Origin: Prevotella sp.
Lineage (GTDB): Bacteria > Bacteroidota > Bacteroidia > Bacteroidales > Bacteroidaceae
DNA length: 40,223 bases
NCBI GenBank assembly: GCA_017554385.1
Contig: JAFZIL010000023.1
Coordinates: 1 to 40,223, forward strand
Direction of reading: 5' to 3'
In this document: positions 10,620 through 35,443 of the stretch, one piece after another
Numbering within the stretch: the stretch's first letter is position 1
How the letters are laid out: the number at the start of each line of letters is the position of its first letter
Made by a program: the position numbers and the translations under genes
The notes under the pieces: model-generated
Told to the model about the DNA's origin: nothing
Databases searched by the model: none
What the model saw: the letters and a program-made list of their open reading frames with translations, nothing else

Positions 10620-13600
10620 TCAGGCGCTCGGTTTTGCCTTCGCATTATGTTCCTTGACAAAATCGGCAGGTTTCTTACCGAACTGTTTGAAGAAGCATTT
10701 GGAGAAATAGGAGGAACTGGAGAATCCTACCATGTAGCCCACCTCGCTGATGAGGTAGTTGCCCTGCAGGAGCAACTGTGCCGCACGTTTGAGTCGCACA
10801 ATCTGGATCATCTCGTTGGGAGTGACATCGGTGAGTGCCTTGATCTTGGCAAAGAGTCCGCTGCGACTGATGTTCAGCTTCTCTGCAAGGAAGTTGACAT
10901 TCAGGTCGGAATTGTTCACGTTATCCTCGATGAGTGCGTTCAACTTTACAAGGAACTGGTTGTCGACCGGTGTTGTGGCCATCTCGGTGACTGGCTGCCA
11001 AGGCTGTGTTGAGAATTTTTGCATGAGCTGCCTTCGCATCTGTATGATTTGGTTGATGCAGGCCTCGACATATTCTAAAGAGAAAGGCTTTTCGATATAG
11101 ATGTCGGCCCCGCCTCGCATACCCTTTACCTTTGAGGCATCGTCGGTCTTGGCTGTGAGCATGATGAAGGGGATATGAGAGGTATGGGCGTTACGGCGCA
11201 CTTGTCGGCACAGTTCTACGCCATCCATACGTGGCATCATCCAGTCGCTGATAATGATACTTACCTCGTTGTGGCTGAGCAGCTCGAGGGCCTCAATGCC
11301 GTCGTATGCCACTAGCACTTCATATCGATGACTGAAGTTGTCCCTAAGGAAGCTGACCATGTCCTCATTGTCGTCGACGATGAGCATGGTGGAAGGTGGA
11401 TTGTGGAGGGGTGAGGATTCTTCGACAAGTGGAGCGGTATGGTCGAGCGGAGATTTGACTTCTATTGAACTGGTTTGGTCGTCCAGTTCCACGCACTCTT
11501 GGCTGACGGGGAGTTTAACCTTGAAGGTAGAGCCGCGCCCTACTTCTGACTCAACGGTGATGGTGCCATGATGCAAATCGACGATATTCTTCACGATATT
11601 GAGTCCGATGCCCGTACCTGGCTTGTTGTCATGCGCCTGATAGAAGGGTTCGAAGATGCGTTGACGGTCTTCTTCGCGGATGCCAATGCCGTTGTCGCTG
11701 ACGATGATGGCAAAAAAGGGGTCGGCAGGATTGACTTCACAGGATAGACGTACCTCGTCCTTGCTGTACTTGTTGGCATTGGTCAGCAGGTTGCTGACAA
11801 CTTTTGTAATGGCTTCCTTATCAACGATGGCGATAAAGTGAGGGTCGGGATAATCGACGGTGAAGCGCTTACCCCCCTGTTCAAAGGTAGGTGCAAAGCG
11901 CTCGCAAACATTCTGGATCAGCTGGCAGATGTTCTGTGGTGCAAAGTGTATTACGATCTGCTGCTGTTCAATCTTGCGGAAGTCGAGCAACTGGTTGACA
12001 AGCTGCAACAGCCGATGGGCATTGCGGTCGATGACTTGAAGCGATGAGTGGTGGATGGTGGATGGTGAAGAGTGTGTTTCTATTTCCTTCTTTATTTGTT
12101 CCAACGGCCCTATAATCAGCGAGACGGGTGTACGGATTTCGTGAGCAATCATCGTGAAGAAATTGAGTCGGGCCTCACGCACCTCATTTTCTTTTTGTTG
12201 AGCCAGCCGCTGCATCTCTTGCTGGTGCAACTGATTGGCTCGCTGCAAGCGGTAATGAATGTAGTACCAGACAGCAGTTACAATCAGCAGGAGATAGAGC
12301 GTTTTTGCCCACCAGCTCCACCAGAAGGGCGGATGTACACGGAGGTGCAGTCGGGCCTCATGGTCGGACCACACACCATCGTTGTTGGTAGCCCGCACCC
12401 TGAATGTGTAGATACCAGCAGGCAGGTTGGTGTAGGTGGCCGTATGCTGGTTGCCTATGAGGTGCCAGTCGTTGTCGAAGTTCTCCATCATATATGCATA
12501 CTGGTTTTTCTGTGGAGAGCAGTAACTGAGCGAGGCAAACGAGAAGCTAAGCATACGGGCGTCGTGATAGTCAAGTTCCATCTCGTCGGTCAGCGTGAGG
12601 TCGAGCGTGGCTCCGTCATCAGTCAGCAGTTCATGACCATTGATTTCGAGCGACGTGATATAGACCGGTGGCATGACGCTGTTGGTCTTGATTTGGTAGG
12701 GATAGAAATAGTTCAGACCGTTATTTGAACCGAAATATATTCGACCGTCGCTGGCCTTCATGGCTGCATTTGGCTGGAACTGCTCGCTCAGCAGACCATC
12801 GTGGAGGGTGAATCTGGTGGTTTGAAGGCTATGTGCTGAGGGCTGAGGGCTGAGAGCGGAGGATTCATGCTCTGGCAAGCGTCCCTGAGGGTTGAGGGTT
12901 GAGGGTGGCTCGTAGCGTACGATGCCACGTTCTGTCGACAGCCACAGCACTCCTTGGTCCTCGACGATACCCATCACGTTGCAGTTGGGCACGTCGAGAG
13001 GGATCCGAGTGAAAACATCGTCATCCTTTTCCTGAAGAAAGAGTCCGGTGGCTGCACCCGCCCAAAGTTGCCCACTGTGGTCGATATGAATGCAGTTTAC
13101 CTGACTGTCGGGCAATGATGCTTTGTGACAGGCATTTTGGGCATAATACAACAAGCCGCCTCCCTGAGTAGCCAGCCACAGCTGTCCCTTACCGTCTTCG
13201 TCGATATCGATGGTCGTTGCCTCTAACTTGTCAACAAGGTTGAAATTGTCGGCTGAGGGGTTGAAAAGATGAAGACCGGTCCTTGTCGCCACCCAAGTAC
13301 GTCCTGCCTGATCGTGGTGGATGGCGTAGGAACTATAATCGTCAAGACACCCCTTGGTGTTATCAGGGATATAATGGCGCAAGTGGCCATTGGAAAGATG
13401 GAGGACGTAGACGCCCGTAGTGTAAGTGCCTATCCACAGTTCCTCACCTTTTATGGCAAGGGCATGAACGTTCAGACTGCCCAGCAGACCGCGATGGGGA
13501 TAGGCAACAAACTGTCGGCTGGCAGGTGAATAGCACATCAGACCGCCATCGTCGCTGGCTATCCAGATGTGGCCTTGCCGGTCTTCACAAAAACGCGAGA

Positions 13601-14714
13601 TGACATTTCCATTCAGCCCCATCTCCACCGACAGACCATCGAAGCGACGTCCAACAGGCGAAACGTAGGTCACACCTCCATAGAACGTGCCTATCCAGAG
13701 GCCTCCTTCAATATCGTTAGTGATAGAATAGACAAAGCGGTCAGACAGTCCCCGTTGGTTGAGCCCGTGCTTCCATTGTTTAGTCATGGGGTTGAAATAT
13801 ACCAGGCCGTCATCGCAACCGATGCAGATCACGTCATTGCCTAGCATCTCGGACGTTTCTGTTCCAACCTGTTGCATGATGGCTGCCGACTCGCCCTGAT
13901 TTTCGAAAAGCGTGTGGATGTGCAGGCCAGCCTTGGTTACTGCAGGCGAAAGCACCTGTTCCAGACGGCCATCGCTGTGCATGAGTAGTAGTCCGTTCTC
14001 CCATGTCCCCAACCAGAGCTGACCGTCGTGGGTCTGGAGCATACAAAGCGCGCCATAGTTGCCGTCGAACAAGAAGTCGACAGGTTCGAACTTATCGTGC
14101 AACCTATTCAGTCGGCAGACGGCATGATAGCTCCAGTTGGTGACCGTCCACACCTGATTGCTATTGTCGACAAAGACTTGTGCTACTGGATCTCCCCCTA
14201 CATCGTATTGTCGCACCTGTCCCGTTTTCAGTGCATAGCACCACACACCGTCGGCCATAGTCGAGACCCATAGCTGGTCGTTCTTGTCGAGGGAGATATG
14301 GGTGACAGCAGAATGGATGTCTAAGGGGAGCCGTTCGGCACGAGTATCTTTGGTATGCTCAGCATGAGTCCCTTCGGCAAGCTCAGCACTTGAACGCTCA
14401 AAGCTGAAACAGAACACCCCCTGTTCGGTGCCTACGTAGATGCCCTGTTTACCAGCCATAAGAGCCGATATATACTGGTTGAAGCCTAACGCTGCTATCT
14501 TGTAAGGCTTCACCGTGGTCCCATCGTAGCGACACAGACCATTGTCGGTACCGAACCACAGGTAGCCGTATCGGTCTTGCACGATGTTTCGCACAGCAGT
14601 TGATGTCAGTCCGTCGTTCATCGTAATATTACGATAGCTGTAGTTGTCTTTTGCAACAGCATGCAATAGGCTGCATAGATAGACAACGACTAGAAGAGCG
14701 GACTTGTTCTTCAT
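10620..14714 (-). CDS. Hybrid two-component sensor kinase/response regulator (HTCS)
   Basis: One-protein regulator of 1364 residues that senses a ligand in the periplasm and activates a nearby uptake locus. Order: signal peptide; beta-propeller of repeated blades with WFGT/WIGT-type strands (about 25-700); Y_Y_Y-like domain (about 715-790); transmembrane helix (about 803-822); HisKA with HEIRTP (phospho-His about 858); HATPase (NKYS, DNGIGI, GTGIGLNI); receiver with VDDNEDM and SDWMMPRMDG (phospho-Asp about 1157); AraC-type HTH at the C-terminus. It starts 10 bp after the preceding stop, so it may be read as the last gene of the 25-kb operon and control it. Repeats are embedded in frame at 11388-11415, 12046-12073, 12835-12905 and 14338-14385, two of them in kinase linkers. 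All key catalytic residues are present. Confidence 0.95.
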   Translation of the reverse strand: MKNKSALLVVVYLCSLLHAVAKDNYSYRNITMNDGLTSTAVRNIVQDRYGYLWFGTDNGLCRYDGTTVKPYKIAALGFNQYISALMAGKQGIYVGTEQGVFCFSFERSSAELAEGTHAEHTKDTRAERLPLDIHSAVTHISLDKNDQLWVSTMADGVWCYALKTGQVRQYDVGGDPVAQVFVDNSNQVWTVTNWSYHAVCRLNRLHDKFEPVDFLFDGNYGALCMLQTHDGQLWLGTWENGLLLMHSDGRLEQVLSPAVTKAGLHIHTLFENQGESAAIMQQVGTETSEMLGNDVICIGCDDGLVYFNPMTKQWKHGLNQRGLSDRFVYSITNDIEGGLWIGTFYGGVTYVSPVGRRFDGLSVEMGLNGNVISRFCEDRQGHIWIASDDGGLMCYSPASRQFVAYPHRGLLGSLNVHALAIKGEELWIGTYTTGVYVLHLSNGHLRHYIPDNTKGCLDDYSSYAIHHDQAGRTWVATRTGLHLFNPSADNFNLVDKLEATTIDIDEDGKGQLWLATQGGGLLYYAQNACHKASLPDSQVNCIHIDHSGQLWAGAATGLFLQEKDDDVFTRIPLDVPNCNVMGIVEDQGVLWLSTERGIVRYEPPSTLNPQGRLPEHESSALSPQPSAHSLQTTRFTLHDGLLSEQFQPNAAMKASDGRIYFGSNNGLNYFYPYQIKTNSVMPPVYITSLEINGHELLTDDGATLDLTLTDEMELDYHDARMLSFSFASLSYCSPQKNQYAYMMENFDNDWHLIGNQHTATYTNLPAGIYTFRVRATNNDGVWSDHEARLHLRVHPPFWWSWWAKTLYLLLIVTAVWYYIHYRLQRANQLHQQEMQRLAQQKENEVREARLNFFTMIAHEIRTPVSLIIGPLEQIKKEIETHSSPSTIHHSSLQVIDRNAHRLLQLVNQLLDFRKIEQQQIVIHFAPQNICQLIQNVCERFAPTFEQGGKRFTVDYPDPHFIAIVDKEAITKVVSNLLTNANKYSKDEVRLSCEVNPADPFFAIIVSDNGIGIREEDRQRIFEPFYQAHDNKPGTGIGLNIVKNIVDLHHGTITVESEVGRGSTFKVKLPVSQECVELDDQTSSIEVKSPLDHTAPLVEESSPLHNPPSTMLIVDDNEDMVSFLRDNFSHRYEVLVAYDGIEALELLSHNEVSIIISDWMMPRMDGVELCRQVRRNAHTSHIPFIMLTAKTDDASKVKGMRGGADIYIEKPFSLEYVEACINQIIQMRRQLMQKFSTQPWQPVTEMATTPVDNQFLVKLNALIEDNVNNSDLNVNFLAEKLNISRSGLFAKIKALTDVTPNEMIQIVRLKRAAQLLLQGNYLISEVGYMVGFSSSSYFSKCFFKQFGKKPADFVKEHNAKAKPSA
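11388..11415. repeat. 4 x 7 bp run in the HATPase-receiver linker of the HTCS
   Basis: Plus strand GGTGGAA GGTGGAT TGTGGAG GGGTGAG. It encodes SSPLHNPPST just before the receiver domain MLIVDDNE. Confidence 0.65.
12046..12073. repeat. 4 x 7 bp run between the two HisKA helices of the HTCS
   Basis: Plus strand GAGTGGT GGATGGT GGATGGT GAAGAGT. It encodes about THSSPSTIHHSS (residues 880-890), just where the two dimerisation helices turn, so it lengthens that hairpin. Confidence 0.75.
12835..12905. repeat. Composite repeat element inside the HTCS beta-propeller
   Basis: Three copies of GCTGAGG/GCTGAGA (12835-12855) and three of (C/T)TGAGGG (12885-12905) flank a core with TGCTCTGGCAAGCGTC. The 33-bp stretch 12858-12890 matches 14755-14787 at 30 of 33 positions. 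It encodes a Pro/Ser/His-rich insert (residues about 603-626, including GRLPEHE) that looks like low-complexity sequence within a blade. Confidence 0.8.
14338..14385. repeat. 2 x 24 bp tandem repeat inside the HTCS beta-propeller
   Basis: Two adjacent 24-bp units (14338-14361 and 14362-14385) agree at about 19 of 24 positions and share a GAG(T)..CTT.GG..(T/A)GCTCA pattern. They encode the polar insert AELAEGTHAEHTKDTRAE, out of character with the propeller strands around it. Confidence 0.7.
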
Positions 14715-14724
14715 ACTTAATGAG

Positions 14725-15954
14725 TTAGTTTATTTTGAACCGATAGGGGTACGAGGAGGGTTCTTGCTCTGGCAAGCGTCTCTGAGGACCGAGCGGAGGA
14801 GCGCCCATGACCACAAGATAGAGATGGCGTAAGGTCTTGCCACGGGGGATGGTAAAGGTTGTAGCATTGGATGGGCTATAGAGACTCTCATCCTGTGTGG
14901 TGACTCCCACGAAGCCGTAGCGCAGGTTCTTTCCGCTTAGCCGTATGCGGAAGGACCTTGAACGTAGGTCAACGAGGCTGTCGAGGAGGATGGCATTGAA
15001 GCCATAGTCCTCGGGAGCGTTCTTTGGAGCCAGCCACTTATTGGGCAGGCGTTCCAGTTCTGTGTTGAAGGTACAGGCGTATGGGCGTGTCTCCTTACGT
15101 GCATGCTTGAAGTCGAAGTTCACAAGGTGCTGGTAGCCTTGAAACATCTCCTCGCTGAATTCGTCCTCATTAAGGTTGTATATGCGTTTGTAGGTCAGTA
15201 TGGGGTCTTCTTCCCTTCGTCCCTGACGGTAGAGCTCGGCAATGGAAGGCCGTCCGTGGAGATCGCTCCACCACTGGATGACATATGGCGAGTGGTAGAT
15301 ATTTTCCATTGCAAGGAAGGCTTTGTGGGTAAGCGTCTTGAAAGCCTCGAAGTGATAGTTCTCGTCGCGAAGCCACCAGGGGTTCACCTGCCAGAGCATC
15401 CACTGTGAGGTCATCTCGTAGAATCCGCTGCCTCCCCATGCATCGCCCACTGAGTCGGCAGGTATCTGCAGCTGGAAGGAGTGTCCGAGTTCGTGAGCCA
15501 TACAGTTCATGGTCTTGTCCTGTATACGGTTAGGCGCTACCCATAGGGCACCGATGGTATTGTCGTAGGTGCCGCCGTAGGCAGTGCCGTCGAGCGAGTA
15601 CCTCACCATGACCATCATCTTGTAGCGGGAAGACTTGCTCTTTAATGGACAGACAAATTCGAGCGTGTCACGGAAGAAGTTATAAAACGTCTGCACCCGC
15701 TCCATGAGTACGGAGAGGTTGAAGGCCATGGTTTTTCCTTCGAGTTCTGGTGGGTTCTGCAGGTCGTTGCCGAAGCCGCGTTCCCAAAGGAAGATGACGT
15801 CGCGCGTCTCAGCAGAGCGCTTCCAGCACCACTGTGAGGTGTCGCTCTCCAGGTTCATTGCACGGAGGTCTTCAGGGATGTAGATGCTCTTCTGTGCTAC
15901 GCTGAGTGCCGGGGGCAACAGGAATAATGCCAGGAAAGGGATGAGGCGATTCAT
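14725..15954 (-). CDS. Secreted zincin-like HExxH protein (DUF6055-like)
   Basis: Protein of 409 residues from ATG 15954; an in-frame TTG at 15963 lies inside the junction repeat and is unlikely. Signal peptide MNRLIPFLALFLLPPALSVA. A zinc-site motif MAHELGHSFQ (His154, Glu155, His158) is followed 22 residues later by a candidate third ligand, Glu180 in GFYEMTSQW; this is the gluzincin pattern. The C-terminus carries a beta-rich segment ending YPYRFKIN, like the family I remember as DUF6055. Proteolytic activity is inferred, not shown. Residues about 388-400 (PLGPQRRLPEQEPSS) come from a repeat element. It is ninth in the operon, 19 bp after SusD and 10 bp before the HTCS. It appears distantly related to the protein at 32873-35443. 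Confidence 0.7.
   Translation of the reverse strand: MNRLIPFLALFLLPPALSVAQKSIYIPEDLRAMNLESDTSQWCWKRSAETRDVIFLWERGFGNDLQNPPELEGKTMAFNLSVLMERVQTFYNFFRDTLEFVCPLKSKSSRYKMMVMVRYSLDGTAYGGTYDNTIGALWVAPNRIQDKTMNCMAHELGHSFQLQIPADSVGDAWGGSGFYEMTSQWMLWQVNPWWLRDENYHFEAFKTLTHKAFLAMENIYHSPYVIQWWSDLHGRPSIAELYRQGRREEDPILTYKRIYNLNEDEFSEEMFQGYQHLVNFDFKHARKETRPYACTFNTELERLPNKWLAPKNAPEDYGFNAILLDSLVDLRSRSFRIRLSGKNLRYGFVGVTTQDESLYSPSNATTFTIPRGKTLRHLYLVVMGAPPLGPQRRLPEQEPSSYPYRFKIN
14755..14795. repeat. Repeat element in the 3' end of the HExxH protein gene
   Basis: The 33-bp stretch 14755-14787 matches 12858-12890 at 30 of 33 positions, and the following CCGAGCGGAGG also occurs at 7134-7144. It encodes QRRLPEQE in the same frame as GRLPEHE in the HTCS. 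Confidence 0.75.
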
Positions 15955-21206: not shown

Positions 21207-22907
21207 TTAGTGTTCGTGGATGTCGCCCAGTGCTGACGGACGGAAGATGATACAGTCTATACGCAATGTGCTGGAGTGGGTGGAGGTTTGTCGGGCGGTA
21301 ATATTCGACTGTACGTCAAACCTTACCTTGGCATCCTGCAGACCATAGCAACTGGTGGGAAACTGGTAGTTTGATACCATCAACACGGTATCGACGGCTG
21401 CAGGGTTGGTTGTCTTGTTTCCGTTGATGCGTCGTGTGTAGACGTGTCCGTTCTCGTCGTTGTAGTTCAGGTATGACCTTACGATGCTGGGCTTGGTGGT
21501 GTCAGCGACAGCCAATGTGTCGTAGGCAGTGGCAGGAACGAAGACGGCATAGATGTCATACTCTATGCCCGAGAGCACATTTGGAACACTAATGCCTACG
21601 GCCAGTTGGGCGGTGATGGGGTCGGGCTTGATTTCAGCAAAGGCGTTACCCGAGACCTTGCCATAGAAGGGATTGGCCGTTGTCACTTCACGAATGGTAA
21701 GCGCTTCGTTGATGTCAATTTTCTCAGCATCTGACTGTGAGACGTAGATGGTGTCGACCGACTGCAGACTCTCAGCCTCGACCTTGATGGTTTGGGCAAA
21801 GGTGTGGAAGGGTGAGAGATGCCACTGGGATGCTTTGCGCACATGACCGTTACTGCACACGATATCGCTGGTAGCGTGGAAGATGCCACCCTCGTCGAAA
21901 GGACGATAATAGGTGTAGTAGGGATAGTCGGGAGATGAGGAACGGAGGGTGGAGGGCTGGTGGAGAGTGGAGACTGCACTGTCCTGAAATGCCACGTCGG
22001 GGTTGAGGGTCTTGCTGAAGAAGGCTCCTCCTAAGATGGCCATACGGGTATTGGCATAGGCCATCGAGTCGCGCTTAGCCACGTTCTTTGCATACTTGAA
22101 ATAAGGCTCATACTGCTGAATCAAACGGCTCCATTCGCTGTTCGTAGGACAGAGCAGCCAGTAGGTGCTATCCTCAGAATTGATGAGTCCGTATTGTTCA
22201 AGGATGATGTTCCTAAGGTCGGAGACAGAGTCGAGATATACGGTCTGCCCGTCGACAATCTCACCCGGTACGCTCTTTGCATCATTGAACTCATAGACGG
22301 AATAGCTGTTCAGGAAGCGGTAGACGCTGTCGAGTTCGGTATCATGACCCAGATATTCGAAAACGTTGGGGAAGTAGTCAACAGGCCCGTCAAGGGTAAA
22401 GAGCAATCCGTTGTTGTAGAGCGCATTTGTAGAAAGCAACTTGCGGGTGCCCAGTGTAGTAGCCGTCAGCACCTGATACTTATCGTTCATCATCGTGATA
22501 GAGTCGTTGGTGAGCGAAGAAACGGGATACTTATAGAGTGCTATATGGTTCTGTAGGAACTGGCGCACCACCGTGTTGTCATTACTGCGTCCTTTCAGTC
22601 CTCCACCTTCTGCCTTCCACTTATCTATGAGACTGTCGGCCTGTGACGATGTGAACGAGTTGTTAGTAGGTGCAAACACCGTGAATGTCTGGCTCCCGTC
22701 AAGCATCTGGTTGTAGCCACATGCCTCGACCACACGGGCAAAGTTGCTCAGCTCTGACTGTGACTTGATGGCTTGCCAGAGCGTCCCATTATCAATGGTT
22801 GAAGCATCATAGTGGTCGTTCCAGTCGTCGCTACAGGAGGATAGTGCTGCGCCGAAAGCGCAGCCTACGGAGAAAGCGGTGATTTTCTTTATGTTCTTGG
22901 TAATCAT
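21207..22907 (-). CDS. FAS1 (fasciclin) domain surface lipoprotein, 566 aa
   Basis: ATG 22907 is chosen; the in-frame TTG at 22916 lies in the junction array. Signal MITKNIKKITAFSVGCAFGAALSS with lipobox Cys25 and the surface-export-like SDD after it. A FAS1 domain (about 35-170) shows NFARVVEACGYNQMLDGSQTFTVFAPTNNSF; a second FAS1-like stretch follows (about 190-350). The C-terminal part (about 375-560) is a beta-sandwich, possibly ligand-binding, ending STLRIDCIIFRPSALG. FAS1 domains usually mediate adhesion; here a role in capturing substrate for the adjacent SusCD is inferred. A short heptamer run (21944-21972) encodes STLHQPSTLRSS. Its signal region resembles that of the preceding FAS1 gene, suggesting a shared origin. 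Confidence 0.85.
   Translation of the reverse strand: MITKNIKKITAFSVGCAFGAALSSCSDDWNDHYDASTIDNGTLWQAIKSQSELSNFARVVEACGYNQMLDGSQTFTVFAPTNNSFTSSQADSLIDKWKAEGGGLKGRSNDNTVVRQFLQNHIALYKYPVSSLTNDSITMMNDKYQVLTATTLGTRKLLSTNALYNNGLLFTLDGPVDYFPNVFEYLGHDTELDSVYRFLNSYSVYEFNDAKSVPGEIVDGQTVYLDSVSDLRNIILEQYGLINSEDSTYWLLCPTNSEWSRLIQQYEPYFKYAKNVAKRDSMAYANTRMAILGGAFFSKTLNPDVAFQDSAVSTLHQPSTLRSSSPDYPYYTYYRPFDEGGIFHATSDIVCSNGHVRKASQWHLSPFHTFAQTIKVEAESLQSVDTIYVSQSDAEKIDINEALTIREVTTANPFYGKVSGNAFAEIKPDPITAQLAVGISVPNVLSGIEYDIYAVFVPATAYDTLAVADTTKPSIVRSYLNYNDENGHVYTRRINGNKTTNPAAVDTVLMVSNYQFPTSCYGLQDAKVRFDVQSNITARQTSTHSSTLRIDCIIFRPSALGDIHEH
21944..21972. repeat. Heptamer-like run inside the 566-aa FAS1 gene
   Basis: Plus strand GGAGGGT GGAGGGC TGGTGGAG AGTGGAG, one unit being 8 bp. 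It encodes a Ser/Thr/Pro-rich loop (STLHQPSTLRSS). Confidence 0.55.
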
Positions 22908-22942
22908 AATTCTCAATTCTTAATTCTCAATTCTTCATTTTA
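22908..22942. repeat. 5 x 7 bp array at the FAS1 / FAS1 junction
   Basis: Plus strand AATTCTC AATTCTT AATTCTC AATTCTT CATTTTA. It ends exactly at the downstream ATG (22905-22907), and the upstream stop (TAA, 22940-22942) forms its far end. Confidence 0.9.
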
Positions 22943-26842: not shown

Positions 26843-26877
26843 AACTATAAACTATTAACTATGAACTATTAACTAAA
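26843..26877. repeat. 5 x 7 bp array at the SusC / SusD junction (pair 1)
   Basis: Plus strand AACTATA AACTATT AACTATG AACTATT AACTAAA. It ends exactly at the SusD ATG (26840-26842). The SusC stop (TAG, 26873-26875) is in the fifth unit. Confidence 0.92.
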
Positions 26878-29800
26878 AGTCCACCGTTATGCCAAGCGTA
26901 TAACTCTTCGCCCTTGGCGTCTGTCCTCCGTCGACGGCAGCTCCGTAGCCACCGTAGCTTACTTCCGGATCTACGCCTTTGTACCTTGTCAGGATGAAGA
27001 GGTTGTTGGCACTGGCATAGAGGCTCAGTCGGTTGATGCCGATAGCCTTCTTGATGGTCTTCGGGTCAAAGGAGTAGCTGAGTTGCAGATAATTGAGCCT
27101 GAGGAAGGAACCATCCTCAACGAAGCGATCGCTGACGAGCGTGTTGTAGTTGGTCGAAGAGCCATACATAGCACGCGGTATGGTAGTAACGTCACCCTCC
27201 TTGCGCCATCGGTAGTTCACGGCCTTGCTCTGGTTGTTGTTGGTGCTCATGGCCTCAGCATCGAGTCGTGCGAGGTTCAGGATCTTGTTGCCCACGCGAT
27301 AGTTGAACTGTGTGTTCAGTTTCCATCGGTCATAGTTCAGTGTGAATCCGAAGCCTCCTGTCAGCTTTGGCAGCGACGATCCGAGATATACGATATCGAG
27401 GGCATTGATGTTGCCGTCGTGGTTCACGTCTTCATAGATGGCATCTCCACCGTTGAACATATAGTTCTTTCCTGTACCGTCGTGTGAGTAGTTATAGATC
27501 ATGCGCACCGGCTTATCCTCGTCGTCGACAACAATCTCGCCTTCCTCGCTTAACACGAAGGGTGCCGTATGGCCTGCGGCGACAAAGTCAAGCCGTTCCT
27601 GGGGTGTCATGTTCAGGAAGGTCTCGTACTGATACTCATATACCCCCTTGTATCGGAAACCGTAGATGGCGCCGAAGGGGTTGTAAAGCTGTACGCGCTG
27701 CAGCACCTCGCGGTTGCTGTAGTAGAACTTCGAGTTGAGAGAGTTCAGCACTGTTTCGTCCATGGTCAGGATCTCGTTTTTGTTGTTGCCGAAGGTCAGG
27801 TTCACGTCGGCGAAGAACTTTCCGCTTCTCAGAAGCTTGTTGGTCTGCAGATTGAGTTCCCATCCGATGTTGCGCATCGAACCGACGTTGCTGTAGGCCA
27901 GCGTATAGTAGCCTGTCGAGGAGGGGATGCTGACGTTGGGCATCAGCATGTCGCGACGCGTAGAGTGATACCACTCAGCCTGCAGTGTCAGTCGGTCGTT
28001 GAAGAATCCAAGGTCGAGACCGATGTCCCATGTCGTAGTAGTCTCCCAGCTGAGGTTGGTCAGACGGATGTTGTCGGGCTTCATCGCGCCCATGTCTATA
28101 TAGCGCGTGCCGCTGCTGTAGATACTCTCGTAGAGATAGTCGCGGTTGGGCTGATTACCCACTCGTCCCCAGCTGGGGCGAACGGCGAGCATCGACAGCC
28201 ATTTACGGGTGGTCTCCATCCAAGGCTCGTCTACAAGGTTCCATCGCAGCGAGACAGCAGGGAAATAGCCCCATCGCCGGTCTGGTCCGAACTTCGTCGT
28301 ACCGTCAGCACGCAGGGAGAAGTCGAACATATAGCGGCCTTTATAGGCGTAGTGGGTGGAGAACGTATAGTACATCGAGCGCCACTGGCTGAAAGAGCTG
28401 CTCATTCCATTGACACGACCACCGGCGGTAGGACTGGTGATGCCACCAGAAGGCAGCTTGGTAGCATCGGTACCCTGTCCGTTCGAGCTTCCGCTCGTCA
28501 GCTCGAATCGTCCCATGGCCATCAGTGAATGGTCTTTGTTGGTGAAGTGGGGTATGAACGTGAGCGTCTGTTTGGTGTTGAAGGCGACGCTCTTTGTGGA
28601 CCCCGTATAGGCATTGTTCACGCCGTTGTTCCAAGAGACCGTCACGAGCTCCTTCGGATAGAACTTGTCGATATACTCATTGAAGATGTTCATGTAGACG
28701 CGTCCTTGCCAATTGAGTTGGTGGTGGTCGTCATCCATGCCCAGCAGTCGGTAGGTAAGCTCGAACTCGGGCGTAATGTCATAGGTACGGTCGTCGTTCT
28801 TTGCTAAGCGTGCCGAGGCAACAGGGTTGACATAGACCCGCTGGTCGTCCTTGAAGACGTCGGGCGCTGACTGCAGCATGGTGTAGAACTTATCGGTGTC
28901 TGCACCCGTGAGCGGGTCCTGTTCGTAGATGCTCATGTTAGGCATCTTCTTATAGGCAATGGAGAGCAGGTCATCGTAGTTGCGCTTGGTATCGGTGTAG
29001 GTGAGGGAGAAGTTAGTTGAGATCTTGATGCGCTCGGACACATAGTAGTCCAATGCCACGCGTGTGGAGAACCGGTCCTGCCGCTGCTCGATGACCGAGC
29101 CCGTCTCGTGGTCGTAGCCACCGCTGATGCGGAAGGTGGCTTTCTCGCCACCTCCGGTCACTGAGAGGTAGTGGTTCTGTCGGAGTCCCCACTGGGTGAC
29201 GGCATCGACCCAGTCGGTGTTGTTGTTATATTGCTCGTATTCAGAGAATGTGGGGTCGTAGTTGAGCTCACGGATGTTTGAGGCATTATCGTTCTGCTCA
29301 GGGTTGAAGTAGGACTCCTTGAGCAGCATGGTATAGTCGTCGCCGCTGAGCATCTTGTAGCCCTTTGGCTGGTAGGTGCCCGTAAGTCGGAGAGAGTAGG
29401 TGAGCTTGGGTGTTCCGCGAGCACCGCGCTTGGTAGTGATCTCGATGACACCGTTGGCACCTTGTGAACCATAGATGGCTGTTGCGGCAGCATCCTTGAG
29501 TACGGTGATGGATGCGATGTCCTCTGGGTTGACGTTCAGTAGCTGTGCGAACTGCTCATCGTTGGCATTGGTGACGTCGAAGTTGTTCATGTCGACGTTC
29601 CAGGTGTTGCCGTTGACCACGATGAGCGGATTGCTGTTGGTAAGTGTGGATATGGAGGAAGCACCACGCAGTCGCATGGTGGTGCCTGCTCCGAGGTTAC
29701 CCGAATTTGCCACGATGTCGAGACCTGCAATACGCCCCTGGAGCGCCTCGTCGACGGTGGTGAGTCCGAGACCCTCGAACTCCTTCATGTCGATGGTCTG

Positions 29801-30190
29801 TGTGGCGTATGATATCTCTCGCTCAGGAATGGCGAGTCCGCCACCGTTGAGTTTCTTCTTTGCCGTGACGGTAACCTCCTTCAGGCTGGTTTGTGAGACG
29901 AGCTTGATGCGATAATCCTCGCGGTTGATGGTTAGCGTCTGTGTCTTGCATCCCACATAACTGAATCGGAGCTTGTCTTTCGGATTGCGTATGCGCATTG
30001 AGAAATTACCGTTCAGATCGGTGGTGGTAGCCTCGATGATACGCCCGTTGGCATCGACCTCGCAGACGGAGGCGCCCATGAGCTCGCCATACTCGTCGGT
30101 CACCGTGCCATGTACAGCCTTGATCTGTGCGCTTGTCGCAAGGATGATAAAATTAAAAAATGTAAGTATAAAAAGTCTATATCGATTCAT
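26873..30190 (-). CDS. SusC-like TonB-dependent outer-membrane transporter (pair 1)
   Basis: Protein of 1105 residues with signal peptide MNRYRLFILTFFNFIILATSA. Carboxypeptidase-regulatory-like domain about 25-105 (VHGTVTDEYGELMGASV, LRFSYVGCKTQT), then the TonB-box region (LKEVTVTA), and a plug domain about 120-255 with LQGRIAGLDIV, NPLIVVNGNTW and ASITVLKDAAATAIYGSQGANGVIEITTKRG. The rest is the barrel, ending AKSYTLGITVDF. It is a more canonical SusC than the one at 17912-21193. It starts 22 bp after the FAS1 stop and is followed by its SusD. Confidence 0.96.
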   Translation of the reverse strand: MNRYRLFILTFFNFIILATSAQIKAVHGTVTDEYGELMGASVCEVDANGRIIEATTTDLNGNFSMRIRNPKDKLRFSYVGCKTQTLTINREDYRIKLVSQTSLKEVTVTAKKKLNGGGLAIPEREISYATQTIDMKEFEGLGLTTVDEALQGRIAGLDIVANSGNLGAGTTMRLRGASSISTLTNSNPLIVVNGNTWNVDMNNFDVTNANDEQFAQLLNVNPEDIASITVLKDAAATAIYGSQGANGVIEITTKRGARGTPKLTYSLRLTGTYQPKGYKMLSGDDYTMLLKESYFNPEQNDNASNIRELNYDPTFSEYEQYNNNTDWVDAVTQWGLRQNHYLSVTGGGEKATFRISGGYDHETGSVIEQRQDRFSTRVALDYYVSERIKISTNFSLTYTDTKRNYDDLLSIAYKKMPNMSIYEQDPLTGADTDKFYTMLQSAPDVFKDDQRVYVNPVASARLAKNDDRTYDITPEFELTYRLLGMDDDHHQLNWQGRVYMNIFNEYIDKFYPKELVTVSWNNGVNNAYTGSTKSVAFNTKQTLTFIPHFTNKDHSLMAMGRFELTSGSSNGQGTDATKLPSGGITSPTAGGRVNGMSSSFSQWRSMYYTFSTHYAYKGRYMFDFSLRADGTTKFGPDRRWGYFPAVSLRWNLVDEPWMETTRKWLSMLAVRPSWGRVGNQPNRDYLYESIYSSGTRYIDMGAMKPDNIRLTNLSWETTTTWDIGLDLGFFNDRLTLQAEWYHSTRRDMLMPNVSIPSSTGYYTLAYSNVGSMRNIGWELNLQTNKLLRSGKFFADVNLTFGNNKNEILTMDETVLNSLNSKFYYSNREVLQRVQLYNPFGAIYGFRYKGVYEYQYETFLNMTPQERLDFVAAGHTAPFVLSEEGEIVVDDEDKPVRMIYNYSHDGTGKNYMFNGGDAIYEDVNHDGNINALDIVYLGSSLPKLTGGFGFTLNYDRWKLNTQFNYRVGNKILNLARLDAEAMSTNNNQSKAVNYRWRKEGDVTTIPRAMYGSSTNYNTLVSDRFVEDGSFLRLNYLQLSYSFDPKTIKKAIGINRLSLYASANNLFILTRYKGVDPEVSYGGYGAAVDGGQTPRAKSYTLGITVDF

Positions 30191-30212: not shown

Positions 30213-32828
30213 TCATTTCAATTTCATCACCTCGTCCTCCCAATTTGTCAGCTGCGCCTTCTCATAGTAGAGGGGCCCGTCTATCTGGTGGACCACGACA
30301 TCAGAGGCATTGTAGAGCTGGGTGTTGTTGGCGTTCTGTGCGTTCTGTATCCAATATTCGCGTCCGGTGATGTTGTAGTTATCGCCTTTGGTTATAACGG
30401 AGCGACGGTTGTTGAGTTGATCGACGATGGTCAGTTGCTCATCGTCGGCAGTCACGGTGACGCTGAAGAATCGCTTGTTGAGCGGGTTGAGCGTTGACGT
30501 CTCATACTTCACGCCCTTTACGGGTACGCCACCGAGGAACACCGAATTGTCCTGAATGTGATATTTCAGGAAGTTGAGTATGCGGTTGGCCACGATGGTT
30601 CGTGCCTGCTTGAGGAGTGTGGGGTCTCTGGCAATATCGGCAAAGCGTCCCGTGGAGTCGTTGGCCAGTTCTTCATAGTCTTCCCATGTGGGTAGCAATC
30701 CCTGCTTGTGGAGCTGGTCGATACTGTCGTTTTGCGGGACGTAGACAGTGTAGTTATAGGCATCGAAGAGGGAACAGTTATAGTCGGCGCAGGTGTAGCT
30801 GCCCATGCGTGACTTAAGTAGCGTGTTGGCCGAGCCACCATTGAGCAGGAGACTGAAGAAGGACTCACATCCTTTGCGCTGGTTGAGGATACTGTAGAGC
30901 GAGCGTTTGCTGGTCAGGGGTAGGGAATGGTTGAGGATATAGCTCTTTCCGTTTCCGTTCTTAGTCTGGTCGTAGATGGTGTCGACGGTCTCGCTGGTCG
31001 CAGTCTCTATCTGCAGGCCACCCGATATGGTCATCAGTCCTTCCTTACCTGCATTTTCCACCTTGATGACGCTTCCGCCCTTGGTGTGGTAGTAGGTGTG
31101 GCCGTCCTCAATGTTTCCTATAACAATAAGATTGTCGAGGAGGTCGCGCAACCGGTTCTCCACCTGGCTGTCGGTAGCGTCGTTGAGTGGAGTGGCATCC
31201 TCGATCTTCTGTTGTGTGTTGAGATCGTAGTTGTATCGATGGGCCTTGACGGTCTTGCGGTCGCGGTCATAGTAGAACTCGTAGAGGATGGATGTGGAGC
31301 TGCCATAGGTGCAGGGGTCTACATAGCTGAGCATTGCGGTATTGGTGGGAATGATAAAGCTGTAGTAGGAGTCCATAGAGTTCAGGTAAGGTTCGTACTC
31401 GAGCTTCTCTATCGCCCAGTAGATGACGTTCATCGTGTTTTCCTTGATGAGTGCGGGGAACGAGACGGAACTGTATGAGGCGGGCGTGAACACTCGGTTG
31501 ACCATATAGACCACTCCGTTGCATCCCATGAAACAGCTGTCGACATTCTCGGTCTTAATGCCGATGGGCACCTTGGTGGTGTTGTCGACGATGTTTCTGA
31601 ACTTCGAGGGCACGGTCTGCGTGAAGGAGCGTATGAGGTTGATGTCAAGCATCTTCACCAGCACCTTCATGGGGACGTTGTCCCACTGGCCATACTCGTC
31701 CTTCAGGACCTTGCCCCCTCCTTTGTTCCACCACTCGTCGAGGGCTGCGTTGCTGGGTGCCAGCAGTGCACCGGCATCATAGTGCAGGTCGCGCCCTGCG
31801 GTGTTGCTATACATATACTGGCTCCATCCGGGGTCGAAGCTCAGGTAGGCGTCGACCACGTTGCCATCAGGATCGGTAGTCAGCTTACCGCCAGTCGAAC
31901 TGCCGAAGCTGCTGATATTGCTGTTGTCGGAGAAATACTTCAGCGTGAACACTGAATCCTGATTGTTATACAGACGGTTATACTCCTTTGTGGCAGCATC
32001 GTCGTAATAGGGAGCACTGAAGCGGTCGAGTAGCGATGCGAATTGGGACATGGAGGTGTGGTTGTGGACAATCTCCATCATATTATCGGCAGCAGTGGCA
32101 AGTCCGTCGATCTTCTGTATGTATCCGTTCTTACAGGTGATGTCGCTCTGTGTGACCTTGCGTCCGTTGACCCAGGAATCGCTAATCGAGGTCGACGCGC
32201 CGTTGGTCAGCGTTGCCAGGTCGTCGCCTGTAATCAGGTTGGTGCGCATGAAAACGGGCAGGAAGTGGATCATGGGTTTCGCCGTATTGTCACGCAACAG
32301 CACGATACCCTCGTGGCGGTTCTTGTACTTCGCCCAGAACGGGGTGTTGGGCATCTGGTCAGGATAGATGCGCGAAACCGAGTCGAATACTGAAGCGGCC
32401 GTCTCGCGTCGCATGCACTGCCCCTTCTGTGGAGGATTGCCACTGACGTTGCTCAACAACTCGAGCAGATAGGCGTTGTTGACCATTGCACTGTTGAGCA
32501 GCAACTTCTTCTGTGCCAGCGACAGGTCATCGTACTTGCCCACGCCCCAGCTATTCTGTCTGAAGAAGTCTTCGTAAACGCTGTCGTTTGCTACGAAGAG
32601 GGTTTTCGAACCCGTCTGGCTGAGTACTGCCTTCTGACCCAAGTCGTCGATGAGTCGCAATGTGTAGTTGTAGCCGCCCTCATCGCTAAGCCGCTCGTAG
32701 ATGCTGTTGCCTAACCACGATGGCTCATCCATGAGCTCGTCCTTCTCGCTGCACGCAACGAGTGCAGTGGTGATGCCGTAGCCTACGAGACAACCCATCA
32801 TGACGACTTTTAGCTTTCTTATCATCAT
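30213..32828 (-). CDS. Large FAS1-like surface lipoprotein, 871 aa
   Basis: Signal MMIRKLKVVMMGCLVGYGI with lipobox Cys26 (LVAC) and SEKDELMDEP, an acidic stretch like surface-export signals. Several fasciclin-like segments: YTLRLIDDLGQKAVLSQTG then KTLFVANDSVYEDFF (about 55-95), YSFIIPTNTAMLSYV (about 485-500) and YTVYVPQNDSIDQL near 690, ending IDGPLYYEKAQLTNWEDEV. FAS1 repeats number three or four but are divergent. It is second in the operon, 44 bp after the HExxH/T9SS gene and 22 bp before SusC. It probably sits at the cell surface with the SusCD complex as a binding or adhesion component; no enzyme motif is visible. Confidence 0.8.
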   Translation of the reverse strand: MMIRKLKVVMMGCLVGYGITTALVACSEKDELMDEPSWLGNSIYERLSDEGGYNYTLRLIDDLGQKAVLSQTGSKTLFVANDSVYEDFFRQNSWGVGKYDDLSLAQKKLLLNSAMVNNAYLLELLSNVSGNPPQKGQCMRRETAASVFDSVSRIYPDQMPNTPFWAKYKNRHEGIVLLRDNTAKPMIHFLPVFMRTNLITGDDLATLTNGASTSISDSWVNGRKVTQSDITCKNGYIQKIDGLATAADNMMEIVHNHTSMSQFASLLDRFSAPYYDDAATKEYNRLYNNQDSVFTLKYFSDNSNISSFGSSTGGKLTTDPDGNVVDAYLSFDPGWSQYMYSNTAGRDLHYDAGALLAPSNAALDEWWNKGGGKVLKDEYGQWDNVPMKVLVKMLDINLIRSFTQTVPSKFRNIVDNTTKVPIGIKTENVDSCFMGCNGVVYMVNRVFTPASYSSVSFPALIKENTMNVIYWAIEKLEYEPYLNSMDSYYSFIIPTNTAMLSYVDPCTYGSSTSILYEFYYDRDRKTVKAHRYNYDLNTQQKIEDATPLNDATDSQVENRLRDLLDNLIVIGNIEDGHTYYHTKGGSVIKVENAGKEGLMTISGGLQIETATSETVDTIYDQTKNGNGKSYILNHSLPLTSKRSLYSILNQRKGCESFFSLLLNGGSANTLLKSRMGSYTCADYNCSLFDAYNYTVYVPQNDSIDQLHKQGLLPTWEDYEELANDSTGRFADIARDPTLLKQARTIVANRILNFLKYHIQDNSVFLGGVPVKGVKYETSTLNPLNKRFFSVTVTADDEQLTIVDQLNNRRSVITKGDNYNITGREYWIQNAQNANNTQLYNASDVVVHQIDGPLYYEKAQLTNWEDEVMKLK

Positions 32829-32872
32829 ATATGTGTTAGTTTGTTTTTATTTGTTTCTTCTGTTCTGGCGCC

Positions 32873-35443
32873 TTATCTTACAATGATTTTCACCGTTGAT
32901 GCCTCCTTGCCGTTCAGTCCCTGCATGACGTAGACACCAGGAGCGATGTTGGCGGGTATGTGGTAATAGCCGTCACGTGTAAAGCTCTGTGAATAGACCA
33001 TTCGTCCACCCTGATCGAAGAGCCTGACCGGCACTTGCAGCTGCGATGCGGCAACTATGTGCATGGATACCTGCTCTCCACGATTTACGACCGTACGCTC
33101 CGGTTTGATGGTGAAGCGGGCTGAAGTCTGGGTGTCGTCAGCAAGGCCCCTGATGCCTGTGAGGAACTCCTGGTCCCTGATGGTCGAACGGTAGTTGTAC
33201 CACTTCAGCTGGGCAGCTGCGGGCTGGTAAATATTCTGTCCCATCTTCAGCCGGTAGTCGAAATGCTTCTTGCGCGTGGATTCACCTTTATATTTATAAT
33301 CGGTGTTCACGACAACGGCAATGACCACGTTGTTGGCAGGCTTGCCTTGCAACTTCATGATGACGTCGCCCTCGCCCTCTACGGGCTGAGAGTAGAATAC
33401 GCGTCCCTGCTTAGTGCGATAGCACAGCATACATACCATGTTTTCGCCCATGGGGCTGAAATGCAGACTGATGATGTCGCCCTCGTTGCCGCTGACATGT
33501 AGTGGAATTTGGTTGGCACCGCTCCATCCGGGTGTGGTGCGCCATTCTGGTTGCCACCAACCGGCACTGTCGACCTCGTTGCATCGGTACATATTGGCAT
33601 AGGGCGTGGCCTTCCAAGGCTCCACTTTCTTCCAATACGGACTCCACTCCTGCTGTACGGTAATCAGCCAGTTGTCGTCGAGCAACTTTCTACAGGCGTT
33701 CGACCACTGTCCTACGTCGATCATGGCCTGACGTGCCCTATATTCCAGTATGAGGTGGCGCATCTGGGCTTCTCCCAGGCTGTCGGCCATACCTTCAAGA
33801 ACGCGGCTTTTGCAATAGCGCCATATCCAGGGGATGGAGCCTCGTCCCAGTATCTCGCTGACGAAATGCGGGAAAAGTTCGCCATACTGCACGCCACCGA
33901 GCATGTTGCGCCAGGTGCATATCTGCTGGCTACCATCGAACATATTCACGCCCTCGGCCGATGGGCCACCGAACGAGTCGTCGAGCAGCCAGCCCGAATA
34001 GCACTCGATGGGCATAAACGGGGCAATCATGTTGCCCGCACTCAGATAGCCCATGCTGGTAGGCGTCTTGCCGGTCTTTACCAGCTCGGCCTCGCCCTGC
34101 AGCCATGTGTTGCCGGCCTCCTGATACCAGGCTGAGTTCTTACAGCCCTCGAGGTCGGCAAAGATGGCGTGGATGCCTTCGTGCACGCAGGCGTTCTGCT
34201 GGAACGTCTGGTCGGTGACCGTCCACGAGGTGTAGTTCGGGTTGTCGTTGTCGTTGGTGAACGCTGGGTCGAAACAGGCTATCGGGTAGTAGCTCAGGTT
34301 GACCATAGGCCACGATGAGCCCTGATACCATGTGGCGCCCTGCCAGCCGCCCCGGTCGTACTTCGTCGCGTTGTCGCTGTAGAGTCCGCTGCCGTAGACG
34401 TAGACCGTAGAGTAGTAGCCGTTGCGGGCACGCTTGTCGGGCGGCCATCCCATCACGTCGCGGAAGAAGGCAAAGTCTTCGTTCATCTTTGCCAGCAGAC
34501 CGTCCTTCGCAGCCTCGGTGACGTGGGCGTTCAGGTTGGGTCCCCATGCCACTGCCCACCATCCGTCGGCCTTGTAGCCTTTCGCGTTGTTATTCTCAGG
34601 CAACAGCTTCGTTGGCGGGTCAAGTGCAGGGTACTCACAGCGGTAGTCGTAGAAAAGGGTGGGCTGGTATTGAGGCCATGTGTAGCTCACGCCCGGGTCG
34701 AATACGTTGTAGGTCAACTCGGTCGTGTTGCCACACTGTCGCTGGTAGATAACGGTGTATAGTCCTGGCTGTGTTGCAACGACCGAGGGCGTGCTTTGCG
34801 TGGTGCCGTCGGGCATCGTCCAGTGCCATATCGGGTCTTCTTCCTCTCCGGCAGGCAGGGTGAGCCGTGGGGCAAGCGTAATGCTTCGTCCCTCTTCCCA
34901 CGCAATGACGGTCGAGGCATCGGTGAGGGTTGCTGCTGCACATTCACTGCCCAGATAACCGAAGATGCGCAACTCGCGCACTCCGCAGGCTTTACTGCTC
35001 CGCATGTAGATGCGAAGTCGGTTGGAAGTGATGGTGACTTCGGTCGACGAGACGTTGCTGTCGTCGGGTGCTGCGAGCGTGGACACCTGTTGCCACTGAT
35101 GTCCGTCCCACCAGCTCACATAGGCTTCGTCGGGAACGACAACATCGCCGTCGGCTGCCCAATACGCGCGAACCTCTTTATATTCATTATGGCGATCCCA
35201 CTGCAGCTCCACATACTCCCACTGTCCAAACGATTCTGCACCGTGGTTGCTGCTCCAGTAGTCGGAAGAACCTGTCCGATTGTTGTTGACGAGTGAAACG
35301 GGATGCTCGTCACCGTTATAGGAGGCCAATAGTCGCGTTGCTTTGAACGAGAGGTTCTGCAACGTCTGAGCTATAGTCTGCTGGGCCTGTGCCGCAAACA
35401 GCAGACAGGTCATCACCATCATCAAAGAATGGAATTTCTTCAT
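32873..35443 (-). CDS. Secreted zincin-like HExxH protein with discoidin-like domain and T9SS tail
   Basis: Protein of 856 residues with signal peptide MKKFHSLMMVMTCLLFAAQA. Residues about 30-170 look like an F5/8-type (discoidin) domain: DYWSSNHGAESFGQWEYVELQW, then ACGVRELRIFGYLG. A short Ig/PKD-like segment follows (about 175-250). The core (about 255-560) has VHEGIHAIF (His421, Glu422, His425) and a candidate third ligand Glu442 in WYQEAGNTW. A C-terminal beta domain resembles the end of the protein at 14725-15954. The last about 75 residues (VPVRLFDQGGRMVYSQS, PGVYVMQG) are a type A T9SS sorting domain, so export to the surface or medium is expected. It is first in the 25-kb operon and directly downstream of its promoter. 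Peptidase activity is inferred from the motif alone. Confidence 0.75.
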   Translation of the reverse strand: MKKFHSLMMVMTCLLFAAQAQQTIAQTLQNLSFKATRLLASYNGDEHPVSLVNNNRTGSSDYWSSNHGAESFGQWEYVELQWDRHNEYKEVRAYWAADGDVVVPDEAYVSWWDGHQWQQVSTLAAPDDSNVSSTEVTITSNRLRIYMRSSKACGVRELRIFGYLGSECAAATLTDASTVIAWEEGRSITLAPRLTLPAGEEEDPIWHWTMPDGTTQSTPSVVATQPGLYTVIYQRQCGNTTELTYNVFDPGVSYTWPQYQPTLFYDYRCEYPALDPPTKLLPENNNAKGYKADGWWAVAWGPNLNAHVTEAAKDGLLAKMNEDFAFFRDVMGWPPDKRARNGYYSTVYVYGSGLYSDNATKYDRGGWQGATWYQGSSWPMVNLSYYPIACFDPAFTNDNDNPNYTSWTVTDQTFQQNACVHEGIHAIFADLEGCKNSAWYQEAGNTWLQGEAELVKTGKTPTSMGYLSAGNMIAPFMPIECYSGWLLDDSFGGPSAEGVNMFDGSQQICTWRNMLGGVQYGELFPHFVSEILGRGSIPWIWRYCKSRVLEGMADSLGEAQMRHLILEYRARQAMIDVGQWSNACRKLLDDNWLITVQQEWSPYWKKVEPWKATPYANMYRCNEVDSAGWWQPEWRTTPGWSGANQIPLHVSGNEGDIISLHFSPMGENMVCMLCYRTKQGRVFYSQPVEGEGDVIMKLQGKPANNVVIAVVVNTDYKYKGESTRKKHFDYRLKMGQNIYQPAAAQLKWYNYRSTIRDQEFLTGIRGLADDTQTSARFTIKPERTVVNRGEQVSMHIVAASQLQVPVRLFDQGGRMVYSQSFTRDGYYHIPANIAPGVYVMQGLNGKEASTVKIIVR

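What the first reader, a model, noticed from the sequence alone, without database searches (positions are those of the whole stretch)
10620..35443. A 25-kb SusCD/HTCS operon built on FAS1 lipoproteins and HExxH proteins instead of glycosidases
Seen: ten leftward genes with gaps of 10-90 bp, order HExxH/T9SS, FAS1, SusC, SusD, FAS1, FAS1, SusC, SusD, HExxH, HTCS. Known: SusCD and HTCS mark polysaccharide utilisation loci, which normally carry glycoside hydrolases or lyases; FAS1 domains are adhesive; gluzincins such as the M60 family can cleave O-glycoproteins. Inference: a surface capture, cleavage and import system for a glycoprotein, peptide or complex glycan, with near-mirror gene order suggesting duplication of a module. 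I know of no characterised system of this exact composition.
Basis: partly seen in the sequence, partly recalled or inferred. Interest (0 to 1): 0.8.

Follow-up and report, generated by a model that had tools for sequence, protein, structure and literature searches.

The report
Likely plant cell-wall glycoprotein harvesting operon
A bacterium related to rumen Prevotella carries a ten-gene surface system, built on a recurring seven-gene FAS1/SusCD import cassette and two zinc-site proteins, that probably captures, cuts and imports the sugar-coated structural proteins (extensins) of plant cell walls.

Summary
The ten leftward genes at 10620-35443 are real and in the order described. They are not a mirrored duplication: FAS1a-SusC1-SusD1-FAS1b-FAS1c-SusC2-SusD2 is a seven-gene cassette found five times in this genome and in other families of its order; the slots of seven close cassettes diverge in step (r 0.90-0.98), while SusC1 and SusC2 share 28-31%. 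One HExxH protein is DUF6055 (346.8 bits), remotely related to the extensin-cleaving Svx gluzincin (34 bits, far under its cut-off). The other (HExxH1) has no Pfam catalytic family, an invariant HEXXHX16E site, a CBM32-like domain and a remote profile link to DUF6055. Both recur beside GH127, GH97, GH43, CotH and DUF4859 genes; GH127 lies within 15 kb of 7 of 18 DUF6055 loci, 0.62 expected. Relatives of the sensor accompany DUF6055 with non-cassette SusC importers in three genomes. The enzymes fit extensin decorations (Hyp-linked beta-arabinofuranose, Ser-linked alpha-galactose). Best reading: surface half of an extensin-type glycoprotein system, with glycosidases on another contig of the same genome. 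Substrate and activities are inferred, not shown. New variant of a PUL; I found no description of the FAS1 cassette in the listings seen.

The parts
32873..35443 (-). HExxH1: 856 aa exported protein; CBM32-like N-terminal domain (about 27-165), gluzincin-type site H421 E422 H425 E442, later beta-sandwich, sorting-tail-like end under the cut-off
   Evidence: remote link to DUF6055
30213..32828 (-). FAS1a, lipoprotein-like, cassette slot 1
   Evidence: PF02469 39.0 bits; lipobox-like start read by eye
26873..30190 (-). SusC1, TonB-linked outer-membrane transporter, slot 2
   Evidence: TIGR04056 710.6 bits
25028..26842 (-). SusD1, slot 3
   Evidence: PF07980 85.7 bits
22940..25006 (-). FAS1b, slot 4: FAS1 region plus CBM35/CBM6-like C-terminal sandwich in a low-confidence model; true start probably the ATG just inside the listed TTG
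   Evidence: PF02469 57.6 bits; profile match to periostin E 2.9e-19
21207..22916 (-). FAS1c, slot 5; true start probably the in-frame ATG just inside the listed TTG
   Evidence: PF02469 38.3 bits
17912..21193 (-). SusC2, second TonB-linked transporter, slot 6
   Evidence: TIGR04056 565.1 bits
15974..17821 (-). SusD2, slot 7
   Evidence: PF07980 35.8 bits
14725..15963 (-). DUF6055 protein; H157 E158 H161 E183 invariant in the 16 aligned rows
   Evidence: PF19527 346.8 bits; NF040510 (Svx) 34 bits, cut-off 625
10620..14714 (-). HTCS hybrid two-component sensor-regulator
   Evidence: relatives adjacent to DUF6055 in G020 and G024, about 8 kb away in G091, about 26 kb away in the same locus in G009
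35508..35539 (-). promoter-like motif TTTG-N20-TAnnTTTG before the operon
   Evidence: consensus recalled
35649..35680 (+). promoter-like motif before the divergent DUF4859 gene
35744..38170 (+). protein with four DUF4859 stretches, divergent neighbour and likely partner
   Evidence: PF16151 147.2 bits
5343..8009 (-). GH106 alpha-L-rhamnosidase of the BT4145 type; neighbour, probably a separate unit
   Evidence: PF17132 187.8 bits; NF049897 1304.2 bits, cut-off 1300
8013..9248 (-). SGNH/GDSL esterase (rhamnogalacturonan-acetylesterase-like only by recall); neighbour
   Evidence: PF13472 50.0 bits

Best explanation
The operon encodes the cell-surface half of a system for plant hydroxyproline-rich glycoproteins of extensin type. 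Proposed steps: the HTCS senses a breakdown product; HExxH1 (with a CBM32-like domain, perhaps exported through T9SS) and DUF6055 cut the glycosylated backbone; the three FAS1 lipoproteins, of which FAS1b seems to carry a carbohydrate-binding-module-like end, act as surface binding proteins; two unlike SusCD pairs import released glycopeptides or arabino-oligosaccharides; GH127, GH97 and GH43 enzymes, encoded on contig C94 of the same genome (and in the same locus in G009), strip Hyp-linked arabinose and Ser-linked galactose. SHOWN: gene content and order, recurrence of the cassette, slot-wise divergence in step, conserved zinc motifs, co-localisation of DUF6055/HExxH1 with these enzyme genes, and sensor relatives with DUF6055 but another importer. 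INFERRED: substrate, peptidase activity, role of FAS1, dual import, joint regulation of the two loci.
For: (1) DUF6055 is remotely related to Svx: 34 bits for the window protein, 39.8-54.5 for six further DUF6055 proteins, two of them from this genome. Svx is reported to cleave carrot extensin but not porcine mucin or concanavalin A (PMC13164431, Results section). (2) GH127 lies within 15 kb of 7 of 18 DUF6055 loci in 60 genomes, 0.62 expected, P about 2e-6. Of ten DUF6055 loci over 200 bits outside the genus nine were fetched: five have a GH127-like gene (G712, G091, G675, G655, G474) and four a GH97-like gene (G712, G091, G675, G058), by BLAST. (3) Of five GH97 proteins scanned, two pass the retaining alpha-galactosidase model (860.9, 807.9; cut-off 800) and three fall below (780.3, 758.3, 731.7). 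(4) G000:C94 has GH43, DUF6055-DUF4859, CotH, GH127, GH97, GH127. (5) G009 has both halves in one locus; L148, L154, L166 and L182 have GH97, CotH, DUF6055L and DUF4859, and L152 CotH, DUF6055L, GH43 and DUF4859, before HExxH1 and FAS1a. (6) Sensor relatives at 44-67% identity occur in G009, G020, G022, G024 and G091; the other hits listed for the nine genomes searched are 37% or less. At these loci G020, G024 and G091 carry non-cassette SusC proteins (23-25% to the window's) and no FAS1. (7) Six of six GH127 proteins checked hold an ETC and a CC motif (meaning recalled).
Against: None of the 19 window proteins scanned is GH127 or GH97, and 11 of 18 DUF6055 loci have no GH127 within 15 kb, some because the contig ends. 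The tenth strong locus outside the genus, G039, was not fetched; its genome has no GH127 match. G589, G566 and G597 have DUF6055 without these partners. The Svx cut-off is far from met; the 412-aa protein is covered by the DUF6055 profile and shows no second domain, whereas Svx needs its second domain to cut extensin. Svx carbohydrate-site residues W136, G137 and N171 are N, C and Q at those offsets. GH127-type enzymes also act on arabinan and RG-II: two of three scanned come closest to aceric acid hydrolase (455.1 and 464.9 bits, cut-off 950; the third 55.5). The window's nearest glycosidase is RG-I type. Cassettes without HExxH genes sit by other enzymes: GH115, GH43, GH2 and PL11-like (C62), GH115, GH43 and a GH127 (C45), M4 peptidase (C61), so neither cassette nor GH127 is extensin-specific. 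Only 12 of 80 HExxH1 loci show a GH127. The FAS1b model is poor (pLDDT 57.1).
Confidence: 0.52

Rival explanations
1. A pectin (RG-I or RG-II side-chain) PUL: GH127-type, GH43 and GH97 enzymes act on arabinan and galactose decorations, and the HExxH proteins only free pectin from protein cross-links.
For: An SGNH esterase and a GH106 of the BT4145 type lie 1.4-2.6 kb beyond the HTCS, past a diacylglycerol kinase gene; two of three GH127 proteins come closest to aceric acid hydrolase; another cassette of this genome lies by a PL11-like gene.
Against: No pectin lyase or galacturonidase was named among the neighbours of DUF6055/HExxH1 that were scanned (parts, not every neighbour); the recurring partners are two gluzincin-type proteins.
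Confidence: 0.22
2. A system for another O-glycoprotein: arabinogalactan proteins, fungal or algal glycoproteins, or host mucin.
For: The N-terminal domain of HExxH1 resembles galactose-binding CBM32 modules; HExxH1 also occurs in marine and soil Bacteroidota.
Against: Most of the closest named loci are rumen or foregut MAGs of plant-eating animals; the glycosidase set matches extensin sugars; no M60 family hit for either HExxH protein at E up to 0.1.
Confidence: 0.15
3. The FAS1 lipoproteins are fibre adhesins that share the operon but are not parts of the import machinery.
For: FAS1 domains are commonly adhesive (recalled); the first 330 residues of FAS1b match periostin.
Against: The FAS1 genes keep fixed places around two SusCD pairs and, in seven close cassettes, diverge in step with them; FAS1b seems to carry a CBM-like end. 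The ten cassettes were chosen because they were complete, so fixed order among them is partly built in.
Confidence: 0.1

Closest known systems
Bacteroidota polysaccharide utilisation locus (SusCD + HTCS)
   Same: SusC/SusD pairs, surface lipoproteins and a hybrid two-component sensor in one leftward operon
   Different: two unlike SusCD pairs interleaved with three FAS1 proteins; no Pfam glycosidase among the ten genes; two gluzincin-type proteins
Svx extensin peptidase of soft-rot bacteria (PMC9266454 passages; PMC10815107 abstract and passages; PMC13164431 abstract and Results section)
   Same: HEXXH...E site and a remote sequence relation to DUF6055
   Different: 34 bits against a cut-off of 625; no second domain in the window protein; sits in an import operon rather than being a lone secreted enzyme
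Bifidobacterium longum gene cluster for beta-L-arabino-oligosaccharides of hydroxyproline-rich glycoproteins (PMC7263609, start of abstract in listings)
   Same: beta-L-arabinofuranosidase plus importer for sugars of these glycoproteins
   Different: ABC transporter there; here FAS1/SusCD, DUF6055, HExxH1 and, on another contig, GH97
Outer-membrane utilisomes (PMC7618045, start of abstract in a listing)
   Same: SusCD with additional surface proteins
   Different: FAS1 proteins in the place of the known surface glycan-binding proteins; complex formation not tested

Membership tests
Polysaccharide utilisation locus | adjacent SusC and SusD genes | tested here: met
   two pairs
Polysaccharide utilisation locus | linked carbohydrate-active enzymes | tested here: inconclusive
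   none among the ten genes; SGNH esterase and GH106 1.4-2.6 kb beyond the HTCS; GH127/GH97/GH43 on contig C94
Polysaccharide utilisation locus | linked HTCS or other regulator | tested here: met
DUF6055 (PF19527) | profile match over the gathering score | tested here: met
   346.8 bits, cut-off 27
Svx/AvrXca equivalog (NF040510) | score of 625 bits or more | tested here: not met
   34 bits; best of six other DUF6055 proteins 54.5
Gluzincin metallopeptidases | HEXXH plus downstream Glu | tested here: met
   invariant in the 50 rows of A2 and the 16 rows of A4
Gluzincin metallopeptidases | zinc-dependent proteolysis | not testable with these tools
   needs an enzyme assay
Peptidase M60 (PF13402) | Pfam match | tested here: not met
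   no such hit for either HExxH protein at E up to 0.1
FAS1/fasciclin (PF02469) | match over the cut-off | tested here: met
   39.0, 57.6 and 38.3 bits, cut-off 22
T9SS type A cargo | C-terminal sorting domain over the cut-off | tested here: not met
   18.3 bits, cut-off 23, in the window protein; relatives L199 and L212 pass the Pfam tail model, L191 does not
GH127 beta-L-arabinofuranosidase (partner genes in C94, G009, G022) | catalytic-domain match and Cys cluster | tested here: met
   six proteins over the PF07944 cut-off; ETC and CC motifs in 6 of 6 (motif meaning recalled). GH127 is not told apart from GH146 by this model (recalled).

The most novel reading that the evidence does not exclude
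The seven genes encode one dual-channel outer-membrane machine, two non-equivalent SusCD importers held together by three FAS1 binding proteins, that takes in large or glycosylated peptides and glycans; it is a plug-in importer used with different substrates (extensin here, xylan- or pectin-type loci in other copies), and this operon is an extensin utilisation locus of rumen Bacteroidota, a kind not yet described.
Probability: 0.3. Interest if true: 0.8.

Novelty: new variant of a known kind. Interest (0 to 1): 0.6.

Why it matters
Extensins are structural proteins of plant cell walls, and I found no account of how rumen or gut Bacteroidota use them in the paper listings seen. If the reading holds, it ties DUF6055, an unnamed HExxH family, DUF4859 and bacterial FAS1 lipoproteins to one process and gives a testable substrate to the 25 of 80 HExxH1 loci that show FAS1 genes. 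Whatever the substrate, a seven-gene FAS1-SusCD cassette with five copies in one 3-Mb genome would be an importer layout different from SusCD with the usual surface glycan-binding proteins.

Tried and rejected

Paper searches, ten in all, open-access papers only; I saw listings, and only 20 of 1,071, 15 of 9,799 and 12 of 69 papers. None of the titles or abstract starts shown describes a FAS1-SusCD cassette or a Bacteroidota extensin locus. The single paper (PMC10199937; passages and one section) mentions a FAS1 gene and SusCD pairs without linking them.

Limits of the counts; 32 pairs with FAS1b-FAS1c spacing in 12 genomes, 11 with a FAS1a hit upstream; the pairs G009:C4 17041/18715, G042:C3 100700/102368 and G022:C57 8135/9806 are two hits in one frame of FAS1a size and G013:C80 8021/5816 likewise, so 32 is an upper figure; FAS1a is missed in the window itself by that search. 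Cassettes were chosen because they were complete. In the three distant ones (G024, G042, G058) FAS1 slots are only 21-30% and SusD slots 26-38% identical to the close ones, no clearer than between slots, so FAS1 and SusD slots there rest on gene order; SusC1 (33-39%) still exceeds the cross-slot level (28-31%). BLAST even put FAS1a of G058 nearest to FAS1c and its second SusD nearest to SusD1. Rows cut at stretch ends: FAS1a of C45, FAS1c of G024, G042 and G058. One search left out GH127 matches under about 100 bits and fragments, which lowers the expectation a little, and used rounded genome sizes. Structure alignments used 49 of 73 long HExxH1 ORFs and 20 of 24 FAS1b ORFs besides the window's.

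Full report
Observation. The window is the whole 40,223-base contig C15 of a 3.06-Mb genome held as 98 contigs, 81% complete. Two Bacteroidetes-type promoter motifs (TTTG-N17-24-TAnnTTTG; consensus recalled) stand back to back in the 300-bp gap between the operon and a divergent gene with four DUF4859 stretches. Four such motifs occur in the window, 0.28 expected from shuffles; one of the four (10421-10452) has no gene after it.

A seven-gene cassette, not a mirrored duplication. FAS1a-SusC1-SusD1-FAS1b-FAS1c-SusC2-SusD2 occurs five times in this genome (contigs C15, C45, C61, C62, C72). The same layout is in G009, G034:C73 and G024 of the genus and in G042 and G058 of other families of the order. 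Among the seven close cassettes the pairwise identities of any two slots correlate at 0.90-0.98 (0.91-0.98 with the three distant ones), while SusC1 against SusC2 within a cassette is 28-31%. The close cassettes thus diverge as units. In the three distant cassettes the FAS1 and SusD slots are assigned by gene order, as their identities are no higher than between slots. FAS1 matches occur in 22 of 60 genomes searched, the window's own included; some are unrelated small FAS1 proteins. Other copies in this genome have other neighbours: GH115, GH43, GH2, an SGNH esterase and a PL11-like gene (C62), GH115, GH43 and a GH127 (C45), an M4 peptidase and an esterase (C61). So the cassette looks like a general importer, with flanking genes setting the substrate.

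Company of the HExxH proteins. In relatives DUF6055 often sits beside GH127, GH97, GH43, CotH and DUF4859 genes. G000:C94, in the window's own genome, has GH43, DUF6055 fused to DUF4859, CotH, GH127, GH97 and GH127; G022:C6 is alike. In G009 both halves are one locus: GH127, DUF6055, CotH, DUF6055-DUF4859, DUF4859 (opposite strand), HExxH1, the cassette, HTCS, an unnamed 1078-aa gene and a second GH127. GH127 lies within 15 kb of 7 of 18 DUF6055 loci; 0.62 expected, P about 2e-6 on a simple random-placement model. Of ten DUF6055 loci over 200 bits outside the genus, nine were fetched: five have a GH127-like and four a GH97-like gene, three (G589, G566, G597) neither, and G566 is a 3.4-kb contig; the tenth, G039, has no GH127 in its genome. 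Of 80 HExxH1 loci (the best of 233) 25 show FAS1, 14 DUF6055, 28 DUF4859, 12 GH127, 9 GH97 and 19 CotH by BLAST against reference proteins. DUF4859 is also fused to an HExxH1 homologue (47.5 bits in L112; a second, 19.9, is under the cut-off).

Same sensor, other importer. The HTCS has relatives at 44-67% identity in G009, G020, G022, G024 and G091; the other hits listed for the nine genomes searched are 37% or less. They adjoin DUF6055 in G020 and G024, lie about 8 kb from it in G091 and about 26 kb from it in G009. At these loci G020, G024 and G091 carry SusC proteins only 23-25% identical to the window's and no FAS1 gene; G020 has no FAS1 match in its genome. A SusD was recognised in G024 and G091; the corresponding G020 gene was not tested. 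In G022 the HTCS relative adjoins a cassette-type SusD2 (66%) on contig C54, and contig C29 holds FAS1b, FAS1c, SusC2 and a SusD2 of the same type; whether these are one cassette or two is unclear. So sensor and peptidase tend to stay together while the importer can change.

Mechanism. Extensins carry short beta-L-arabinofuranose chains on hydroxyproline, the longest ending in an alpha-L-arabinofuranose, and alpha-galactose on serine (PMC13164431). GH127, GH43 and a GH97 of the retaining alpha-galactosidase type (two of five over the 800-bit cut-off, three under) fit those bonds, and an Svx-related protein fits the backbone. I therefore propose extensin-type glycoproteins, cut at the surface by HExxH1 and DUF6055, bound by FAS1 and SusD proteins and imported by two SusC channels. 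Everything beyond gene content, motif conservation and co-localisation is inference. Rivals: a pectin locus (0.22), another glycoprotein (0.15), FAS1 as mere adhesins (0.1).

Known or new. It works like a PUL and meets the SusCD and HTCS features; the ten genes contain no CAZyme found by Pfam. It is not a member of the Svx equivalog. The nearest functional precedent is the bifidobacterial cluster for arabino-oligosaccharides of hydroxyproline-rich glycoproteins, seen in listings only. Ten paper searches, of which I saw listings, some of them cut, showed no description of a FAS1-SusCD cassette or a Bacteroidota extensin locus. I rate it a new variant of a known kind.

Noticed in passing
window 35744-38170: Protein with four DUF4859 stretches divergent from the operon; DUF4859 is fused to DUF6055 (C94, G009) and to an HExxH1 homologue (L112), suggesting a shared binding role.
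   Followed up: partly
G000:C62, C72, C45, C61 (L033-L036, L078-L085): Four further FAS1-SusCD cassettes in the same genome with different enzyme neighbours (GH115, GH43, GH2, PL11-like, GH127, M4 peptidase).
   Followed up: partly
L039:11107-12639, L038:10568-12541 and others: CotH-domain (PF08757) proteins recur beside DUF6055 and HExxH1 (19 of 80 HExxH1 loci); role unknown.
   Followed up: no
window 10421-10452: Bacteroidetes-type promoter motif on the + strand between the HTCS and the diacylglycerol kinase gene, with no annotated gene reading from it; chance or a small transcript.
   Followed up: no
L034:2383-5538, L084:6564-10100, L082:8524-12834: Very large proteins (1051, 1179, 1436 aa) near other cassettes with no Pfam family over its cut-off.
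   Followed up: no
L154:12566-15198: FAS1a lies in two open frames in this relative; left as found.
   Followed up: no
window 5343-9248: GH106 rhamnosidase of the BT4145 type and an SGNH esterase, a small RG-I-like pair beyond a diacylglycerol kinase gene.
   Followed up: partly
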